Shown here: positions 1 to 41,979 of the stretch, piece by piece
How positions within the stretch are numbered: the stretch's first letter is position 1
Layout of the letters: each line of letters starts with the position of its first letter
Source of the DNA: Solirubrobacterales bacterium
GTDB lineage: Bacteria > Actinomycetota > Thermoleophilia > Solirubrobacterales > JACPNS01
Reading direction: 5' to 3'
Assembly (NCBI GenBank): GCA_016185345.1
Contig: JACPNS010000016.1
Coordinates: forward strand, 1 to 54,974
Length of the DNA stretch: 54,974 nucleotides
The notes under the pieces: model-generated
What the model saw: the letters and a program-made list of their open reading frames with translations, nothing else
Database searches by the model: none
Told to the model about the DNA's origin: nothing
Made by a program: the position numbers and the translations under genes

Positions 1-44
1 AAAATATTACACAAAACAAATCTCTACACATATCAAACTTCCCC
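1..44. other. G-free AT-rich tract replacing expected 16S sequence
   Basis: The first 44 bases contain no G at all and are rich in A, T and C. Recognisable 16S sequence begins abruptly at about position 45 with TGACAAACCGGAGGAAGG. In other bacteria the bases before that point are conserved 16S, so this tract does not belong to the gene. It sits at the window edge and is most likely an assembly or read-end artefact; the end of an inserted element cannot be excluded. Confidence 0.6.
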
Positions 45-766
<722 letters not shown>

Positions 767-2753
767 GTCAAGATAGTAAGGGCACACGGTGGATGCCTTG
801 GCATCTGAAGCCGAAGAAAGACGTGAACGGCTGCGATAAGCCGCGGAGAGGAGCTGAATATCCTTTGACCCGCGGATCTCTGAATGGGTAAACCCAGCGC
901 TGGTAATGCAGCGTTATCCCACACTGAATACATAGGTGTGCGGAAGGTAAGCGGGGGAACTGACACATCTCAGTACCCCGAGGAAAGTAAATCAACCGAG
1001 ACTCCCCTAGTAGCGGCGAGCGAAAAGGGATCAGCCTAAACCTCATACGTGTAAGCAACCACGCGTTGCGTATGAGGGGTCGTAGGACATTTTGTCCTGG
1101 AAGTGGTTTTCCAGGCGTGAGTTACAAAGCTGCAGTTAGTGGAAGCTGTTGGAATCCAGCGCCACAGCGGGTGATAGCCCCGTACGCGAAAACTGGCAGT
1201 CTCACGATAGATGTTCCTGAGTAAGACCGTGCACGTGAAACGCGGTCTGAACCCGGGGGGACCACCCTCCAAGGCTAAGTACTTCCAGATGACCGATAGC
1301 GGACAAGTACCGTGAGGGAAAGGTGAAAAGTCCCCCAGACGGGGAGTGAAATAGTACCTGAAACCGCGTGCCTACAAGCGGTCGGAGCACCTTTAGGGTG
1401 TGACGGCGTGCTTTTTGCATAACGAGCCGGCGAGTTACTCGTCATTGGCAAGGTTAAGTGATGAACGGAGCCGCAGCGAAAGCGAGTCCGAATAGGGCGA
1501 CTTAGTCAATGGCGGTAGACCCGAAACCGGGCGAGCTATCCATGGCCAGGCTGAAGCGAGGGTAAGACTTCGTGGAGGGCCGAACCCACCTGGGTTGAAA
1601 ACCGGGGGGATGAGCTGTGGATTGGAGTGAAAGGCTAAACAAGCCCGGAGATATCTGGTTCTCTCCGAAATATATTTAGGTATAGCCTCGAGTAAATTGC
1701 GTGATGGCCGTAGAGCACTGTTTGGACTAGGGGTCTTACCGGATTACCGACTTCAGGCAAACTCCGAAGACCATCACGTTTACCTCGGGAGTCAGTTGCT
1801 GGGGGATAAACTTCAGCGTCAAAAGGGAAACAGCCCAGACCACCGTCTAAGGTCCCCAAGTTCTAGTTAAGTGGAAAACGATGTCTGAGTGCACAGACAG
1901 CCAGGAGGTTGGCTTAGAGGCAGCCACCCTTTAAAGAGTGCGTAACAGCTCACTGGTCAAGTGTTCAGGCGCGGATAATTCAACGGGGCTCAAACTAGAC
2001 ACCGAAGACGTGGATGCACAGATTTATCTGTGCGTGGTAGGAGAGCGTTCTCAAGGCTTTGAAGCAGTCGCGGAAGCGTATTGTGGAGCGTTGAGAAGTG
2101 AGAATGCCGGCATAAGTAACGAAATGAGAGTGAGAATCTCTCACACCGATTGTCCAAGGATTCCTGAGTAAAGCTCGTCTTCTCAGGGTTAGTCTGGACC
2201 TAAGGCGAGGCCGAAAGGCGTAGTCGATGGATAACAGGTTGATATTCCTGTACCGCGTCGCACCCGTTTGACCGATGGGGGGACGTAGAAGGCTAGGAGA
2301 ACCCAGGCGATGGTAGTCCTGGGGTAAGCATGTAGGGGCGGCACCAGTTAAATGCGGCGCTGCGATAACCCGAGGTGCGATGCCAGCTGGCTTTACTGCC
2401 GGCGAGTCTCTGACGCCACACTACCGAGAAAATCCTCTAGGGAGGATGCACGCGCCAGTACCAAAACCGACACAGGTGGACAAGTAGAAAATACTAAGGT
2501 GATCGAGATAACCATCGTTAAGGAACTCGGCAAAATCGTCCCGTAACTTCGGGAGAAGGGACGCCCTATTACCGTGACGCCATTTACTGGTTGAGCGGGA
2601 GGGGGCCGCAGTGAATTGGCCCAACCGACTGTTTACCAAAAACACAGCTCTCTGCTAAGTCGTAAGACGACGTATAGGGGGTGACTCCTGCCCGGTGCTG
2701 GAAGGTTACGTGGAGGTGTTAGAGCTTGCTCGAAGCACTGAAACTAAGCCCCA

Positions 2754-3178
<425 letters not shown>

Positions 3179-3478
3179 AGCGAAAGTCCTTGTCGGGTAA
3201 GTTCCGACCTGCACGACTGGAGTAACGAGTTGGGCGCTGTCTCAACGATGGGCTCGGTGAAATTGCAGTCTCGGTGAAGATGCCGAGTACCCGCGGTAAG
3301 ACGGAAAGACCCCGTGCACCTTTACTACACCCTGATATTGGAATATGGAGCATTTTGCTCAGGATAGGTGGGAAGCTTTGAAGCGTCGGCTTTGGCCGGC
3401 GTGGAGCTAACCTTGAGATACCACCCTGAATGTTTTGTGTTTCTAACGGGTTGCCGTGAATCCGGCATCCGAACAGTG

Positions 3479-3516
<38 letters not shown>

Positions 3517-3532
3517 GTGTAACGGAGGCGCC

Positions 3533-3563
<31 letters not shown>

Positions 3564-3611
3564 CCGAAGAGTGCAAAGGCATAAGGGAGCTTGACTGCGA
3601 GACCCACAAGT

Positions 3612-3613
3612 CA
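3612..3613 (+). other. Deletion junction in 23S rRNA domain V
   Basis: The conserved stretch between the helix preceding E. coli about 2360 and A2503 is absent. The motif GGGATAACAGG, present in every functional 23S rRNA, occurs nowhere in the window. The flanking sequences offer no clean direct repeat longer than a couple of bases that would explain a simple slippage event. Misassembly is the most economical explanation. Confidence 0.85.
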
Positions 3614-3644
3614 TGTCGGCTCGTCACATCCTGGGGCTGGAGTT

Positions 3645-3677
<33 letters not shown>

Positions 3678-3678
3678 T

Positions 3679-3726
<48 letters not shown>

Positions 3727-3845
3727 TACCGTGGGCGTTGGAGAATTGAGTGGAGTTGCCCCTAGTACGAGAGGACCGGGGTGAACAGTCCTCTGGTGTA
3801 GCAGTTGTTCTGCCAAGAGCATCGCTGCTTAGCTACGACTGGACC

Positions 3846-3878
<33 letters not shown>

Positions 3879-4164
3879 GACCACGAGATGAGTTCTCCCA
3901 TCGCTTTAAGCGAGTAAGAGTCCTGGAAGACCACCAGGTTGATAGGCCAGCAGTGGAAGAGCGGTAACGCTTGTAGCTGACTGGTACTAATCGCTCGAGG
4001 GCTTGACGGATATTTTTACTTCTCTTCGGAGAAGCAAACATCACGCGATTTACGTTTTTCGGCTTCGTTTCTGAGTTGTGTTACAAAGGCTTGTGCAGTT
4101 TTCAGGGCCCGCGGGCGCCCGGCGTTCTAGACGCTTGCGGCAGCCACGTGCGGTTCCTTCCAAT

Positions 4165-32027: not shown

Positions 32028-33728
32028 ATGACACGCCTGAGCGAATATCTCCTGCCGACCGAGAAGCAAGCCCCTGCCGACGCCGAGGCAATCTCGCACA
32101 AATTGATGGTTCGAGCGGGCCTCATCCGTCAGATCGGAGCTGGCCTCTGGACCTACCTTCCCGCTGGCTGGAGGGTCCAACGCAAGGTTGAGCAGATCAT
32201 CCGAGAAGAAATGGACCGCTCCGGCGCGATGGAGATCCTCATGCCGGTCATCCAACCGGCGGACCTCTGGGAGAAAACCGGGCGAATCGGCATCTCAGAG
32301 CTCTTCAGGCTCAAAGACCGCAAGGACACGGACATGGTGCTGGCCATGACCGGTGAAGAAGCCGTCACCAACCACATCGCTCGCGAAGTGCGCTCCTACC
32401 GTGACCTTCCGCTCACGCTCTACCAATTTCAGACGAAGGGCCGTGACGAGCCCCGACCGCGCGCGGGAATGCTGCGCACGCGCGAGTTCACGATGAAGGA
32501 CGCGTACAGCTTCGATCGCGACGAGGATGGGCTTGCCCGTTCTTACGACATCCAGGCCAACGCCTACAAGCGCATTTTCGATCGAATCGGCCTCGAGTGG
32601 TACATGGTCGAGTCGGATGTCGGAATGATGGGGGGATCCCGCGCCGACGAATACATGGCCCCGTGCGCCGCTGGTGAGGACAATGTCGCGCTGGCCGCTG
32701 GCTACGCCGCGAACGTCGAGATCGCCACCGGAACGCCCGCGCCGCGTGTCGCCGGTCCTGATCTCGACGCACCGGAGGAGGTCGCTACGCCCGGCCAGAC
32801 GACGATCGAGCAGGTGGCTACCGCCCTGAACGTTGCGCAGAGCACGCTCCTGAAGGCGATGCCGATGATCGACGAAGAGGATGGCACGCCGCTGCTCGTG
32901 ATCCTCCGGGGTGACCACTCGCTGAACGAGATCAAGCTGCAGAACGCAATCGGGCGTCCATTGCGGCAGGCCAGAGATGCCGAGATCGAGAAACACTTCA
33001 ACTCGCCGACGGGGTACACGGGCCCGCTCCGCCAATCCGTACGCATCGTCACCGATCGCGCCTGCGAGGGCGAGGCAGGCGGTTGGGTCGCCGGAGCGAA
33101 CAGAGCCGACACCCACGTCAAGGGCGTCAAGATCGGCCGTGACTTCGAGACAGAGTTTGCCGACGTTCGAACCGTCGTTGCCGGTGACCTCTCACCGGGA
33201 GGCGACCCGATCGAGATCGTTCCGGCGATCGAGATCGGCAACATCTTCAAACTCGGTACTCGCTACAGCGAGGCGTTGGGAGCAACGTTCCTCGACGAAG
33301 AGGGCAAGGAACACGCGATCGTCATGGGAAGCTACGGAATTGGCCCGGCACGTGTGGTCGCAGCTGTAGTCGAACAGCTCGCCGACGCTGCAGGGATCGT
33401 CTGGCCTAAGGCAATTGCTCCGTTCCACGTTCACCTCGTCGTTCTGGGCAAAGACCCGGAGGGGCCTGAGCGCGTGGCCGCCAACAACCTTTACGAAGAG
33501 CTCATCGAGGCTGGGCTCGAGGTGATCTACGACGACCGCTCCGCCGGTCCGGGCGTGAAATTCGCTGATGCCGAACTGCTCGGCTGCCCGATTCGCATAA
33601 CGCTGGGCGCGCGCAGTCTCGAATCCGGTGAGCTCGAGCTTCAGATCCGTCGTGGCCAGGAAAACAAATCGATTCCGATCGAGGGCGCGGTGAAGGCGAT
33701 CCAGGCCGAGCTCGACGCGGTCGACTGA
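32028..33728 (+). CDS. proS: Prolyl-tRNA synthetase (bacterial type)
   Basis: ProS charges tRNA-Pro. The 566-aa class II synthetase has motif 1 and 2 regions (RAGLIRQIGAGLWTYLPAG, LYQFQTKGRDEPRPRAGMLR, REFTMKDAYSFD), an INS editing domain between motifs 2 and 3 (about 225-400, including GDHSLNEIKLQNA), motif 3 (GSYGIGPARVVAAVVEQ) and the anticodon-binding domain (PFHVHLVVLG, YDDRSAGPGVKFADAELLG). It leads a run proS-pgsA-RsiG-FHA-MerR. Confidence 0.96.
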   Translation: MTRLSEYLLPTEKQAPADAEAISHKLMVRAGLIRQIGAGLWTYLPAGWRVQRKVEQIIREEMDRSGAMEILMPVIQPADLWEKTGRIGISELFRLKDRKDTDMVLAMTGEEAVTNHIAREVRSYRDLPLTLYQFQTKGRDEPRPRAGMLRTREFTMKDAYSFDRDEDGLARSYDIQANAYKRIFDRIGLEWYMVESDVGMMGGSRADEYMAPCAAGEDNVALAAGYAANVEIATGTPAPRVAGPDLDAPEEVATPGQTTIEQVATALNVAQSTLLKAMPMIDEEDGTPLLVILRGDHSLNEIKLQNAIGRPLRQARDAEIEKHFNSPTGYTGPLRQSVRIVTDRACEGEAGGWVAGANRADTHVKGVKIGRDFETEFADVRTVVAGDLSPGGDPIEIVPAIEIGNIFKLGTRYSEALGATFLDEEGKEHAIVMGSYGIGPARVVAAVVEQLADAAGIVWPKAIAPFHVHLVVLGKDPEGPERVAANNLYEELIEAGLEVIYDDRSAGPGVKFADAELLGCPIRITLGARSLESGELELQIRRGQENKSIPIEGAVKAIQAELDAVD

Positions 33729-33733
33729 GCGCT

Positions 33734-34360
33734 GTGCGGATGGCTCGCGAGCGCGGTTTCAAACGGATCGCCGGCATCGACCGGTCCGGGGGTCCAGATG
33801 AGCTCACCAGCGGCAATCAGCCCTGGCGCCCCTGCACGATCCCCAACTTCATCGGCTACGCACGAGCGCTGCTGATCCCGATCTTCTTCGTGCTCGCGTG
33901 GAACTCGCCGGACGGTCGCGACTCGACGGCAAACATCGCGCTGTTCATCTGCGGGGCGAGTGACTACCTGGACGGCTTGGCCGCTCGCCTGACCGGTCAG
34001 TTCAGTCGGCTCGGCACGCTACTCGATCCCTTGATCGACCGCCTGATGATTCTGGCCGCCGGTGTCATCATCTACAAGTTCGAGCTGCTCCCGCTCTATC
34101 TGATTCTGCTCGTGTTCATACGCGAGGCGTTGATGTTGGTGCTTTCAGTGCCCGCGCTTATGAAGGGCATTGAGATCAAGGTCAACTGGATCGGTCGCCT
34201 GGCGGTCTGGCCCTTGATGGGGGGCGGCATGCTCGCGCTCTACCTTGATACCTGGGTCGCAAACGCGCTCGTCTGGATTGGCGTGCTGGGTTCGTACGCC
34301 GCCTCGTGGTTGTATTTCAAAGCCGTCTGGCCGCAGCTGCGCGCAAAACCTCAACCGTAG
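33734..34360 (+). CDS. pgsA: CDP-alcohol phosphatidyltransferase, PgsA-like
   Basis: A 208-aa integral membrane enzyme with the complete CDP-alcohol phosphotransferase signature D-x2-DG-x2-AR-x8-G-x3-D-x3-D, read as SDYLDGLAARLTGQFSRLG then TLLDPLIDR (about 75-102). It most likely makes phosphatidylglycerophosphate from CDP-diacylglycerol and glycerol-3-phosphate, or a related phospholipid such as PI phosphate; substrate choice cannot be read from the motif. A poorly conserved, 35-residue hydrophilic N-terminus precedes the first membrane segment. Starts at GTG 33734 and ATG 33740 are both possible. Confidence 0.88.
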   Translation: MRMARERGFKRIAGIDRSGGPDELTSGNQPWRPCTIPNFIGYARALLIPIFFVLAWNSPDGRDSTANIALFICGASDYLDGLAARLTGQFSRLGTLLDPLIDRLMILAAGVIIYKFELLPLYLILLVFIREALMLVLSVPALMKGIEIKVNWIGRLAVWPLMGGGMLALYLDTWVANALVWIGVLGSYAASWLYFKAVWPQLRAKPQP

Positions 34361-34503
34361 GTGGAGCCTTAGGGAAAAGTCTGCTTATACTGCAGGCACT
34401 CCTCCGGCGGTCCGCAATTTTGGGGCGGTGCCAAGGAGATCTGGGGTTGGACCACGAAACTGTTGGTTCCAGAGCTTTTCAAAACTTTCGAGGGAGCAAC
34501 GCG

Positions 34504-35061
34504 TTGGACGAATGGGTTTCAGACATCGGCTCGATGAGCGATGCCGAGCTGAAGGGACTGATCGGTGAACTCGCCACCGAAGAGCAGGACATCTCGTACG
34601 GGCGCCGCATCCTTCACGGCAAGATCGACCTTCTGCGCGCCGAGCTCGTAAATCGACTGCGCGCGCGCCACGACGCCGGCAACGAGACAATCACCGACGC
34701 CGATGTCGCAAAGCTGACCGATCTGATCACCGCCGCAGAGAGCGAGGCAGCTCCGGGTGGACAGCTTGCAGACACCGAGCCGCACGAGTCTTCGAGCGCT
34801 CAGACCGAGCCGTTCCCGGACCTCGGCGCACTGACCGACGTTGAGCTGAAGGAGCTGATTCGAAAGCTCACAGACGAAGAGCGCGAGATCTCCTACCAGC
34901 GTCGCATCCTTCACGGCAAGATCGACATCCTTCGCGCCGAGCTGGTCAATCGCATGCGCACGCAGCGTGAAGAGGGCCAGGCGACCATCACTGGCGAGGA
35001 CATCGAACAGCTCACCGAAATTCTGTCCGGCAAGGCCGCCGCTCCGGCGGAGGGGGAATAG
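34504..35061 (+). CDS. RsiG-like protein with two tandem c-di-GMP-type helical motifs
   Basis: The 185-aa protein consists of two homologous units. Unit 1 (about 11-76) contains Glu27, Ser31, Arg34, His38 and Asp42; unit 2 (about 110-175) has Glu126, Ser130, Arg133, His137 and Asp141. The spacing E-x3-S-x2-R-x3-[H]-x3-D equals the c-di-GMP-binding motif of the anti-sigma factor RsiG of Streptomyces and Rubrobacter, with His instead of Gln. Both units share RRILHGKID and LRAELVNR and end in an acidic helix. A disordered linker (about 80-105) joins them. The TTG at 34504 is preferred (GAGGGAG 8 nt upstream). Partner sigma factor is not in the window. Confidence 0.78.
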   Translation: MDEWVSDIGSMSDAELKGLIGELATEEQDISYGRRILHGKIDLLRAELVNRLRARHDAGNETITDADVAKLTDLITAAESEAAPGGQLADTEPHESSSAQTEPFPDLGALTDVELKELIRKLTDEEREISYQRRILHGKIDILRAELVNRMRTQREEGQATITGEDIEQLTEILSGKAAAPAEGE

Positions 35062-35067
35062 CGTCAA

Positions 35068-35529
35068 GTGGCGCTGCATTGCCCCGAATGCGGCTTCGTA
35101 AACCCCGCTGGGGCAAACTACTGCCAGAAGTGCGGCGCGTACCTCGCCGAGGAGGTCGCTCCCGGCACCACGACGGCGCAATACGACTTGGGCGAGACCG
35201 CAGAGGGTGAGAGCGTGAATCCCTCAGAGACGCCCGCTGACGGCCCCTCACTGGTCATCCGCACCGGCGGCCGCGCCGGCGACAGCTTCACGCTCGACGG
35301 AGATCGATTCAGCGTTGGGCGCGACACCGACTCAGACGTTTTCCTCGACGACGTCACGGTCTCCCGCAACCACGCAGTGATCGTGCGCCGCGCCGACGGC
35401 CTGCACATCGATGACCTCGGCTCGCTGAACGGCAGCTATGTCAACCGACGCCGCATCGAGTCCCACTTTCTCGCCGACGGCGACGAACTTCAAATCGGCA
35501 AATTCAAGCTGACCTTCCTGGAGCGTTGA
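35068..35529 (+). CDS. Zinc-ribbon FHA domain protein (GarA-like)
   Basis: The 153-aa protein starts with a zinc ribbon (Cys5, Cys8, Cys19, Cys22: CPECGF and YCQKCGA), followed by an acidic, Thr-containing linker and a forkhead-associated domain (about 60-150). FHA residues for phosphothreonine binding are present: FSVGRDTDSDVFLDD, VSRNHAVI, and LGSLNGSYVN. In Mycobacterium, GarA (Rv1827) is phosphorylated on an N-terminal ETTS-type motif and regulates central nitrogen metabolism; here the linker has TTT but no exact ETTS. GTG start; overlaps the next gene by 1 nt. Confidence 0.88.
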   Translation: MALHCPECGFVNPAGANYCQKCGAYLAEEVAPGTTTAQYDLGETAEGESVNPSETPADGPSLVIRTGGRAGDSFTLDGDRFSVGRDTDSDVFLDDVTVSRNHAVIVRRADGLHIDDLGSLNGSYVNRRRIESHFLADGDELQIGKFKLTFLER

Positions 35530-36314
35530 TGGCAATCGAGCAGCAGACTTCAATCAACGCAGCATCACCCAACGGCTCGTCCGGCGAGGGTGAGGTGACG
35601 ATCGTCCCGCGCGAGAAGGCGCTGACGATCGGCGCAGTGCGTAAGACGCTCGAAAAGGAGTTCGGCGACGTCTCGATCTCCAAGATTCGCTACCTCGAAG
35701 ACCAGAAGCTGCTCACGCCCAGGCGCACTGAAGGCGGCTACCGCGTCTACACGCAGGACGACGTCGCGCGCTTGCGCACGATCCTGCGTCTCCAGCGCGA
35801 CGAATACTTGCCACTTCGCGTAATTCGCCAAGAACTCTCGGCCGGTCGCTCAGAAGAAGAACTGCCACCGCGCTCTGCGCAGCCCGCACGCGGCACGCGC
35901 CGCTTCAGCCTGACTGATGAACAGTCACAGACGCTCTATGCAGCGGACGACGTCCTCGCTGACACAGGCGCGCCCGCTGACCTCGTCAGGGAATTGATCG
36001 ACTTCGGCCTCGTCACCGGATCGAGCAGGGCCGGAGCAACGTACTTCGATCAGACTGAGCGCGAGATCATCCGTGCCGTGACCGAACTCGCTCGCTATGG
36101 CGTGTCTGGCCGCAACCTGCGCGTATTCAAGACGTCAGCAGACCGCGAGTCTGCGCTGCTTGAACAGATTTTCGCTCCGGGCCTGCGCTCGCGTAGTCGT
36201 GAAGCGCGCGGAGACGCGGTCGAAGCGCTGGAGAACCTCACCGCTGTGACTTCGCACCTCAAACACCTTTTGCTTGTGCGCGATCTGCGTCGACTGGTAA
36301 CGACCCGCGGCTAG
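35529..36314 (+). CDS. MerR-family regulator, FtsR/Rv1828-like
   Basis: A 261-aa DNA-binding protein. The MerR winged HTH (about 35-105) reads LTIGAVRKTLEKEFGDVSIS then KIRYLEDQKLLTPRRTEGGYR and DVARLRTILRLQRDEYLPLR. The following 155 residues are mostly helical without the Cys pattern of metal sensors. Size, domain plan and position directly after a GarA-like FHA gene match Rv1828/FtsR, a regulator of division genes such as ftsZ in corynebacteria. ATG 35529 overlaps the FHA stop (TGATG). It converges on the gene at 36311 with a 4-nt overlap of stop codons. Confidence 0.85.
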   Translation: MAIEQQTSINAASPNGSSGEGEVTIVPREKALTIGAVRKTLEKEFGDVSISKIRYLEDQKLLTPRRTEGGYRVYTQDDVARLRTILRLQRDEYLPLRVIRQELSAGRSEEELPPRSAQPARGTRRFSLTDEQSQTLYAADDVLADTGAPADLVRELIDFGLVTGSSRAGATYFDQTEREIIRAVTELARYGVSGRNLRVFKTSADRESALLEQIFAPGLRSRSREARGDAVEALENLTAVTSHLKHLLLVRDLRRLVTTRG

Positions 36315-36817
36315 CGGGGAATCGTCCCGCGCAGAACGGTCTTCTCGCTGGGTGGCGCGCCGTTGATGATCACGCGCAGTTCCACGCGCCTGTACTTCTG
36401 CAGTTCGGCAACCGTGAGCTTGGCCTCGCCGACAAAGATGCGTTCGCTGCCGATGGCCGAATTTCCGAGCAGTTTGTCTTCGGGCTGTCCACCGGTCAAG
36501 ACCAGCTGGTAAATCTGCTTTTCCGTTGATGGCTTCAGGCGGGCGGCGAGTACACGCATCGATTCCGCGCTTCCTCGACGAAGCACCTCGGCCAGTCCGC
36601 GCCCGGAAGAGCCACCGATCGGCTTGAGCTGAATACGCTCGATGATCACCGGGGTCAGGACCTTGGGCACCACCTCCGGGTTATCGTCGCCGGAGAGCAA
36701 GGTGCGCCCTGCGAAGCCAGCGACAAGAAGAAGCGCCAACAGGGCCGCTGCATAGAGAACCAGCCGGCGCTTGCGAACGTCTGGATCGCGTGCCGGAGTT
36801 GTGTCCTCGGTGGCCAT
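36311..36817 (-). CDS. Small membrane-anchored protein, possibly RskA-like extracytoplasmic domain
   Basis: I do not firmly recognise this 168-aa protein. A short cytoplasmic N-terminus (ATEDTTPARDPDVRKRR) precedes one membrane helix (LVLYAAALLALLLVAGFAG), followed by a roughly 120-residue outside domain. The outside part, including KQIYQLVLTGGQPEDKLLG and VELRVIINGAPPSEKTVLRG, recalls the C-terminal domain of RskA-type anti-sigma factors, but the cytoplasmic part is too short for a zinc-finger anti-sigma domain. TAGGAT lies 9 nt before the ATG. Confidence 0.7.
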   Translation of the reverse strand: MATEDTTPARDPDVRKRRLVLYAAALLALLLVAGFAGRTLLSGDDNPEVVPKVLTPVIIERIQLKPIGGSSGRGLAEVLRRGSAESMRVLAARLKPSTEKQIYQLVLTGGQPEDKLLGNSAIGSERIFVGEAKLTVAELQKYRRVELRVIINGAPPSEKTVLRGTIPR

Positions 36818-40203: not shown

Positions 40204-41979
40204 ATGGCTCCGGCCCGCAACGAAACCCCGCCCCGCCCGGTCGATGACCCTGGCGGAACTCCTCAGATCACGTCAGACACTCCGCCTTCGCACCAGCACC
40301 TGCAGTCGCTTGTGGGCCGGCGCATAGGTGAGATCGTTGTCGCGCTCGGGTTCGCCACAGAAGCGCAGGTTCAGGCCGCGGTAGTTGAAGCCGGCGAGAC
40401 CGGTCGCGCAACGGGTCGCGTTCTGTTCGACCATGGAACGATCAACAAGAATCAGCTAGCGCAGGCGATTGCTGCGCGCACCCAGATTTCCTATATCGAC
40501 CTGCGCAACCTCGAGCTGGACGAGCGGGCGCTGAATGCGATCGATGGCGACACCGCAGCGCGCTACCGCGCTGTGCCGGTCAAATACGTCGACGACGACA
40601 CACTCCTTGTGGCCATCTCGGAACCCGCAAACGTCCTGGCGGTGGATGACATTGCGTTGATGACAGGGCTGAATGTGCGCGCCGCCCTCACAACAGAAGA
40701 GCAGCTGGAAGAGTTGCTCTCGCGCCTCAGCCGAAGCGACGTCGAACGAGCATCTCGCACCGCCGTGAGGCAGGCCGGAAACCTCGCGAGCGGAGAGTCC
40801 TCCGACGCCGAAGACGAGGCTGCCTCGGCGAATCTGCTCGAGTCAGTTCTCACCAACTCCTTGCGCCAGCGAGCGTCCGACATCCACCTGGAGACGCTCG
40901 ATGACCAGACCGTGCGCGTGAGGTACCGGATCGACGGGATCACCCACGACAGCACGAAGGTCGCGGCTCAGCTCGCGCTTCGGATGTTCGCGCGGATCAA
41001 GCTGATGGCGGGGATGGACATTTCCCTGCGGCACGTGCCTCAGGATGGACGTGCCAATTACGGCCCCGAGGGCGCTCAGGTGACCCTCCGCGTTGCAACT
41101 TTGCCGACAATTCATGGAGAGTCGGCAGCGATTCGAATTCTCGACCGCAAGAACGTGCCGCCGCTGGATCGCCTCGGGCTTGATCCAGTCGGTCTCGCCA
41201 GATTCATGCGCGCGTTGCACAAACCCCATGGCGCGATCCTCGCCACAGGTCCGACCGGCTCCGGCAAGACCACCACGCTGTATGCGGCGCTCTCCGAGCT
41301 GAATACCTCCGAGCGTACGATCATCACGATTGAAGACCCCGTCGAGTATCCGTTGGCGGGAATTCGCCAGGTTCAGGTCGCCACGAAGCGCGGGCTCACA
41401 TTTTCGTCAGGTCTGCGTACGATGCTGAGGTCGGATCCGGACGTGGTGATGGTCGGCGAAATACGCGACCACGAGACCGCGAAGATCGGAGTAGAGGCGG
41501 CTCTCACCGGGCGCCTCGTCCTCACTACGTTGCACACCAACAACGCTGCCTCCGCTGTCACCCGACTCACCGAAATGGGCGTAGAGCGCTATCTGGTGGC
41601 GTCTTCGATCGAGTGTGTCGTTGCGAGCCGCCTGGCGCGAAAACTCTGCGCGGAGTGCCGCAAGCCGGTCACGATTGATGAAACCGCAATGCGCGAGGCC
41701 GGTTACGCCGACGCGGCGATCGAAGCCTTTGAAGGCTACGAAGCCGTAGGTTGCGCACGTTGTGCTCAGACGGGATACCGCGGGCGTACCGGAATCTTTG
41801 AAGTCCTTTCTATCGACGACCGGATTCGCGAGCTGTTGCTCGATCGGTTCCCGGCGAGGGCGATTGAGGACGCGGCGCGTGAAAACGGAATGGTCACTCT
41901 TTCGGAGTCAGCATTCGAGCGGGTCCGTCAAGGCGTCATTTCGCTTGCAGAAGCGGCACGGATCACAACTACGGATTGA
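40204..41979 (+). CDS. GspE/PilB-type secretion or pilus assembly ATPase
   Basis: A 591-aa type II secretion/type IV pilus ATPase. Residues about 36-180 form an MshEN/T2SSE_N-like region (VGRRIGEIVVALGFATEAQV and TGRVLFDHGTINKNQLAQAI), a module that in some homologues binds c-di-GMP. The ATPase core has Walker A GPTGSGKTT (about 349-357), an Asp box and Walker B-like DPDVVMVGEIRD, and a His box (LHTNNAASAV). A zinc site (CAECRKP, CARCAQ) follows. No pilC, pilM-Q, pilin or prepilin peptidase gene is in this window, so its partners lie elsewhere or are lost. Confidence 0.92.
   Translation: MAPARNETPPRPVDDPGGTPQITSDTPPSHQHLQSLVGRRIGEIVVALGFATEAQVQAAVVEAGETGRATGRVLFDHGTINKNQLAQAIAARTQISYIDLRNLELDERALNAIDGDTAARYRAVPVKYVDDDTLLVAISEPANVLAVDDIALMTGLNVRAALTTEEQLEELLSRLSRSDVERASRTAVRQAGNLASGESSDAEDEAASANLLESVLTNSLRQRASDIHLETLDDQTVRVRYRIDGITHDSTKVAAQLALRMFARIKLMAGMDISLRHVPQDGRANYGPEGAQVTLRVATLPTIHGESAAIRILDRKNVPPLDRLGLDPVGLARFMRALHKPHGAILATGPTGSGKTTTLYAALSELNTSERTIITIEDPVEYPLAGIRQVQVATKRGLTFSSGLRTMLRSDPDVVMVGEIRDHETAKIGVEAALTGRLVLTTLHTNNAASAVTRLTEMGVERYLVASSIECVVASRLARKLCAECRKPVTIDETAMREAGYADAAIEAFEGYEAVGCARCAQTGYRGRTGIFEVLSIDDRIRELLLDRFPARAIEDAARENGMVTLSESAFERVRQGVISLAEAARITTTD

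What the first reader, a model, noticed from the sequence alone, without database searches (positions are those of the whole stretch)
34504..35061. Tandem RsiG-like protein with two c-di-GMP-type motifs in one chain
Streptomyces RsiG binds c-di-GMP with two degenerate motif copies in one helical hairpin; Rubrobacter RsiG uses single-copy chains as a dimer. Here two nearly identical units, each E-x3-S-x2-R-x3-H-x3-D, are joined by a flexible linker, and Gln is replaced by His in both. It could be a separate evolutionary route to a two-site c-di-GMP switch, or a sensor with altered ligand choice.
Basis: partly seen in the sequence, partly recalled or inferred. Interest (0 to 1): 0.68.

Follow-up and report, generated by a model that had tools for sequence, protein, structure and literature searches.

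The report
Tandem RsiG: independently fused c-di-GMP anti-sigma
An uncultured actinobacterium has fused two copies of a small protein that normally pairs up to hold a sigma factor in check when the messenger c-di-GMP is present; this looks like an independent repeat of the fusion known from Streptomyces, with traces of the fusion event still readable in sister species.

Summary
Window 34504-35061 (+) encodes a 185-aa protein with two RsiG domains (Pfam PF22802, 124.6 bits, two stretches), each with an intact E-x3-S-x2-R-x3-H-x3-D motif. Its closest solved relatives are S. venezuelae and Rubrobacter RsiG. The genome has a WhiG sigma factor, about 20 GGDEF proteins, type IV pili and no flagellin.

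The "separate route" reading is largely supported. All five genomes of this genus (Solirubrobacterales, Thermoleophilia) carry the tandem. Other order members with RsiG have a single-motif RsiG in the same gene slot (proS-pgsA-rsiG-FHA-ftsR). Both units fall among these, apart from Streptomyces-type N and C units. Three sister species keep the start codon and Shine-Dalgarno of the single gene inside the fused frame. One duplication for all twin RsiGs is rejected (p-AU 0.017); one shared only with Streptomyces-type twins is disfavoured but not excluded (p-AU 0.18). Another genus in the class made its own tandem.

"Altered ligand" is not supported: His is universal in the order, and the His-bearing Conexibacter RsiG binds c-di-GMP but not c-di-AMP (PMC8325347).

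Best reading: a single-chain, c-di-GMP-armed anti-WhiG factor, probably controlling type IV pili and c-di-GMP enzymes. New variant of a known kind.

The parts
34504..35061 (+). tandem RsiG-like anti-sigma factor (185 aa, TTG start)
   Evidence: PF22802 twice, 124.6 bits; PDB 6pfj/7lq4 RsiG; AF2 models whose best PDB match is RsiG
34490..34496 (+). Shine-Dalgarno GAGGGAG, 7 nt before the TTG start
   Evidence: read from sequence; TTG and following codons conserved in 5 species
34582..34629 (+). unit 1 c-di-GMP motif E27-S31-R34-H38-D42 on helix 13-57
34738..34815 (+). linker between units (about residues 79-104; 81-94 predicted disordered)
   Evidence: AF2 pLDDT
34804..34806 (+). position of the ancestral ATG start of the single-motif gene; ACC here, ATG with upstream AAGGGAG in three sister species
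   Evidence: DNA alignment
34879..34926 (+). unit 2 c-di-GMP motif E126-S130-R133-H137-D141 on helix 112-156
32028..33728 (+). prolyl-tRNA synthetase (proS), conserved upstream neighbour; name from recalled family features, no family scan run
   Evidence: synteny by tblastn
33734..34360 (+). CDP-alcohol phosphatidyltransferase (pgsA-like), conserved upstream neighbour
   Evidence: PF01066, synteny
35068..35529 (+). zinc-ribbon + FHA protein (OdhI/GarA-like), starts 6 nt after the rsiG stop
   Evidence: PF00498, NF041660 115 bits but below its cut-off of 200, synteny
35526..36314 (+). ftsR MerR-family regulator
   Evidence: NF050798 213.6 bits, above cut-off 150, synteny

Best explanation
A single-chain RsiG. 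A single-motif RsiG gene in the pgsA-rsiG-FHA-ftsR slot duplicated in tandem within this lineage, and the first copy fused to the second. What is elsewhere an antiparallel homodimer of single-motif chains is here one polypeptide whose two motif helices form the antiparallel hairpin. When c-di-GMP is high, the two motifs together bind the intercalated c-di-GMP dimer and clamp WhiG, as in Streptomyces and Rubrobacter. When it falls, WhiG is freed to transcribe type IV pilus and c-di-GMP-enzyme genes. Shown here: family membership, intact motifs, genus-wide conservation under purifying selection, synteny, WhiG and GGDEF genes in the genome, the internal-start relic. Inferred: hairpin fold (prediction only), c-di-GMP binding, WhiG sequestration, regulon.
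For: Family and motifs. Tandem in 5/5 genomes of the genus; single-motif RsiG in the other order members that have RsiG, and only 4 of 80 named genome loci have two motifs in one ORF. Same slot as 29/29 fetched single-motif loci of the order. Unit trees: both units inside the order's single-motif group (95/87), with Streptomyces-type N (98/94) and C (100/99) units forming their own clades (support 85/88 for the order group). HMM scores: unit 1 97-99 bits to order single-motif vs 52-54 to Streptomyces-type N; unit 2 110-113 vs 48-55 to Streptomyces-type C. AU test: one duplication for all twins p=0.017, one shared with the second tandem genus (g47) p=0.012. Internal AAGGGAG...ATG-GAY-TCN-TTY in L014, L050, L051 resembles the start of the single-motif gene. 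WhiG: 359.8 bits to the WhiG equivalog, with Lys and Gly of the c-di-GMP contact and TESRVSQLHTK of sigma4 kept. RsiG and WhiG co-occur (Fisher p=0.0035). WhiG-type promoter TCAA-N16-GCCGATAA about 95 bp before pilB, and one abutting a pilT-like gene. Three of 21 GGDEF ORF starts have a near-consensus site just upstream, about 0.4 expected. Both AF2 models have RsiG as best PDB match (probability 1.00 and 0.99).
Against: The alignments have only 54-79 columns, and a duplication shared with the Streptomyces-type twin alone is not rejected (p-AU 0.35, 0.12 and 0.18). Units 1 and 2 are not recovered as sisters (sister grouping allowed, p-AU 0.50), so an older duplication within the order with later loss cannot be excluded. 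No coordinates of the models were available to check the antiparallel geometry, and TM-scores are modest (0.45). Promoter matches were examined after seeing the hits and are few. Binding, anti-sigma activity and regulon are untested.
Confidence: 0.74

Rival explanations
1. Same duplication as the Streptomyces-type twin-motif RsiG: one ancient fusion, with the single-motif genes of the order derived from it by loss of a unit.
For: AU tests do not reject g1 N+canonical N with g1 C+canonical C (p 0.18; 0.12 and 0.36 separately). Both are twin-motif RsiGs with similar spacing.
Against: HMM scores favour order single-motif RsiGs by about 45 bits for unit 1 and about 58-64 bits for unit 2; trees; canonical twins lie outside the pgsA-FHA-ftsR slot; internal start relic; one origin for all twins rejected, p 0.017.
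Confidence: 0.1
2. The tandem protein dimerises instead of folding back, giving a four-motif assembly that binds two c-di-GMP dimers or two WhiG molecules.
For: Each unit keeps the short helix after the motif helix that single-motif RsiGs have (TDADVAKLTDLI and TGEDIEQLTEIL), and the linker is long and flexible.
Against: Single-chain AF2 models match the monomeric S. venezuelae RsiG over 168-174 columns. Canonical twin RsiG is monomeric (PMC8325347).
Confidence: 0.12
3. A sensor with changed ligand choice (c-di-AMP or another dinucleotide) because Gln is His in both motifs.
For: His in both motifs is real. The WhiG of this genus has Lys where the c-di-GMP phosphate-contacting Arg is otherwise kept, so the pocket may be somewhat altered.
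Against: His is universal in the order. C. woesei RsiG with His binds c-di-GMP and not c-di-AMP (PMC8325347). The guanine-reading Arg and Asp are intact.
Confidence: 0.04

Closest known systems
Single-motif RsiG of Thermoleophilia and Rubrobacteria (R. radiotolerans, C. woesei; PDB 7lq2/7lq3/7lq4)
   Same: Same family, same motif (His form as in C. woesei), same gene slot in the order and class, WhiG in the genome
   Different: Two units fused in one chain; the published survey found only single-motif RsiG in these classes
Twin-motif RsiG of Streptomyces (PDB 6pfj, 6pfv)
   Same: Two motifs on two helices of one chain; the predicted models have these structures as best PDB match
   Different: Units do not group with its alpha1/alpha5 by tree and HMM score; both motifs intact with His; both units keep a C-terminal helix of the single-motif type; different gene neighbourhood
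Tandem RsiG of genus code g47 (family code f7) in the same class (L061-L065)
   Same: Tandem RsiG in the same FHA-ftsR slot
   Different: A separate duplication (shared origin rejected, p-AU 0.012)

Membership tests
RsiG (PF22802) | Pfam model above the curated cut-off | tested here: met
   124.6 bits against 27; each unit alone 62.6 and 71.5
RsiG (PF22802) | E-x3-S-x2-R-x3-[Q/H]-x3-D motif, two per functional unit | tested here: met
   both intact and invariant in 5 species
RsiG (PF22802) | antiparallel helical hairpin | tested here: inconclusive
   AF2 pTM 0.68 and 0.64; top PDB match S. venezuelae RsiG, TM 0.45; geometry not inspected
RsiG (PF22802) | cognate WhiG sigma factor in the genome | tested here: met
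   WhiG equivalog NF004935 359.8 bits, cut-off 343; co-occurrence p=0.0035
RsiG (PF22802) | specific c-di-GMP binding and WhiG sequestration | not testable with these tools
   no wet-lab data
Streptomyces-type twin-motif RsiG clade | unit 1 groups with alpha1 and unit 2 with alpha5 of that clade | tested here: inconclusive
   trees and HMM scores place both units with single-motif RsiGs of the order, but the AU test does not reject the grouping (p 0.18)
Single-motif RsiG lineage of the order | proS-pgsA-rsiG-FHA-ftsR gene order | tested here: met
   29/29 single-motif loci of L001-L030 have rsiG-FHA-ftsR, 28 of them also pgsA; same order around the tandem genes
Single-motif RsiG lineage of the order | one motif per chain | tested here: not met
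   two motifs in all five genomes of the genus

The most novel reading that the evidence does not exclude
Fusion of single-motif RsiG into a one-chain switch has happened at least three times (Streptomyces-type; this genus; g47, with f10 possibly a fourth). In three sister species the retained internal Shine-Dalgarno and ATG still give a separate single-motif RsiG from the same gene, so tandem and single forms coexist: the intermediate stage of a dimer-to-monomer transition caught in living species, with a matching change in the WhiG pocket (Arg to Lys).
Probability: 0.3. Interest if true: 0.68.

Novelty: new variant of a known kind. Interest (0 to 1): 0.5.

Why it matters
The published account (PMC8325347) has one intragenic duplication giving twin-motif RsiG, and only single-motif RsiG in Thermoleophilia. 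Tandem RsiGs nested among single-motif ones suggest that the homodimer-to-single-chain step recurred, which makes it a natural replicate for testing the 'conserved architecture' model of how symmetric proteins arise. The sister species with the old start site preserved would allow the steps (tandem genes, fused gene with internal start, fused gene only) to be compared directly.

Tried and rejected
Altered ligand because of His: rejected on the family-wide distribution of His and on published binding data. NCBIfam weak hits to Cas1 (17.7 bits against cut-off 385) and PDB hits to iodotyrosine deiodinase: coiled-coil noise. AU tests on the 54-column set were uninformative; a first own IQ-TREE run failed (thread setting) and another timed out, replaced. 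The exact WhiG promoter consensus occurs once in the genome, no more than the reversed control; the relaxed one 83 against 54, so most single matches are chance. An Rfam scan of 33500-36500 found nothing. No homologue on plasmids. The first family searched (PF24277) was a wrong accession from memory.

Full report
OBSERVATION. The ORF at 34504-35061 (+) gives LDEWVSDIG...AEGE, 185 aa. The TTG start has GAGGGAG 7 nt upstream, and TTG and the following codons are conserved in four relatives. Pfam RsiG (PF22802) matches twice, 124.6 bits in all, 62.6 and 71.5 for the units alone. The PDB hits by sequence are S. venezuelae RsiG (6pfj) and Rubrobacter RsiG (7lq2, 7lq3, 7lq4). Both motifs are intact.

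WHERE IT OCCURS. In 61 genomes (the window's own and 60 relatives), 51 have RsiG. All five genomes of the window's genus have two RsiG matches in one frame; in the others the RsiG gene has one. A few order members have a second RsiG-like match elsewhere in the genome. Named relatives are uncultured Thermoleophilaceae, Solirubrobacterales and Actinomycetota MAGs, two of them from groundwater by their isolate names (L121-L124, all tandem); the remaining named loci hold one motif per ORF, with 4 of 80 tandem. In a sample of 299 genomes of the class, 235 have RsiG, and follow-up of those with several matches shows other tandem genes: five genomes of genus g47 and two of family f10.

GENE ORDER. 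In 29 of 29 single-motif loci among L001-L030, rsiG lies before an FHA gene and ftsR, 28 of them also with pgsA upstream. The tandem genes of this genus, g47 and f10 lie in the same slot, and Streptomyces-type twins do not. The tandem is therefore most simply the orthologue of the single-motif gene.

HOW IT AROSE. In the unit tree (126 units, 54 columns) the order's single-motif units together with both units of this genus form one group (95/87). Streptomyces-type N units (98/94) and C units (100/99) are separate clades, and the g47 units group with each other and with f10 C (100/88). A longer, smaller alignment agrees. Profile scores: unit 1 97-99 bits to order single-motif against 52-54 to Streptomyces-type N; unit 2 110-113 against 48-55 to Streptomyces-type C. 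AU tests under LG+G4: one duplication for all twins p=0.017; one shared by this genus and g47 p=0.012; units sharing descent with the Streptomyces type p=0.18 (not rejected); units 1 and 2 as sisters p=0.50 (allowed). These hypotheses were framed after seeing the first tree. DNA alignment shows in L014, L050 and L051 an AAGGGAG followed by ATG-GAY-TCN-TTY-CC directly before unit 2, resembling the start of the single-motif gene (for example ATG-GAC-ACC-TTC-CC in relatives). In the window and L049 this site is ACC and the Shine-Dalgarno is gone. This points to tandem gene duplication and fusion, with unit 2 keeping the old gene's start, which has since decayed in the window. dN/dS is about 0.02-0.16 in both units.

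PARTNER AND LIGAND. The genome has one strong WhiG (C15:163525-164205; 359.8 bits to the WhiG equivalog), next to what read as a tyrosine recombinase and, further upstream, a dprA-like gene (these two names are by eye). The Lys and Gly that contact c-di-GMP in the published structures are kept. The Arg (Sv R62) is Lys in all five genomes of this genus and Arg in the 18 other order members examined; this is one inherited change, so only suggestive. RsiG and WhiG are both present in 26 of 31 genomes and both absent in 3 (Fisher p=0.0035). There are 30 GGDEF matches in about 20 frames and no flagellin. His in the motif is universal in the order, and the His-bearing C. woesei RsiG binds c-di-GMP, Kd 25 uM, 1.7 uM with WhiG, and not c-di-AMP.

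STRUCTURE. AlphaFold2 with 32 twin sequences (pLDDT 80.6, pTM 0.68) and with five genus sequences only (75.9, 0.64) gives two motif helices of about 45 residues (13-57 and 112-156), each followed by a short helix, with a disordered linker. Foldseek's best PDB match to each is S. venezuelae RsiG. E-values are above 0.001 and TM about 0.45, so this supports, but does not prove, a hairpin.

REGULON. In Rubrobacter, WhiG-type promoters lie before type IV pilus and c-di-GMP-enzyme genes (PMC8325347). Here a site with perfect -10 (TCAA-N16-GCCGATAA) lies about 95 bp before pilB of the pilBTC cluster, another abuts a pilT-like gene, and three of 21 GGDEF ORF starts have a near-consensus site just upstream, about 0.4 expected. 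Genome-wide excess is modest (83 against 54 control), and the comparison was made after seeing the sites.

LIMITS. Nothing biochemical is shown. Short alignments leave a shared origin with the Streptomyces type formally open. The relatives carrying the tandem are all MAGs.

Noticed in passing
L058, L059 (genome G026); possibly L072 (G199): RsiG-like domain with the c-di-GMP motif (intact in L058; His replaced in L059) fused behind a double ClpC N-domain (PF02861 113-122 bits plus PF22802 about 54 bits): a possible c-di-GMP-responsive Clp adaptor-like protein.
   Followed up: partly
L041, L213, L215, L220, L221: WhiG has Lys in place of the c-di-GMP phosphate-contacting Arg (LVKYVAGK) in all five genomes of the tandem genus, Arg in 18 other order members examined.
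   Followed up: partly
L061-L065 and L066-L067: Other tandem RsiG genes in the same slot, in genus g47 and family f10 of the same class; the g47 duplication is separate from this one, f10 unresolved.
   Followed up: partly
window 35068-36314: The rsiG-FHA(GarA/OdhI-like)-ftsR gene order is kept across the class and in an outside family with Rubrobacter-like RsiG, hinting at a functional link between c-di-GMP, central metabolism and cell division control.
   Followed up: partly
window 40204-41979: A solitary second PilB-like ATPase gene (537 bits to TIGR02538, below its cut-off) 5 kb downstream of rsiG, separate from the main pil cluster on contig C12.
   Followed up: no
window 1-4000: G+C about 54% against about 62% in the rest of the window; a possible recent acquisition.
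   Followed up: no
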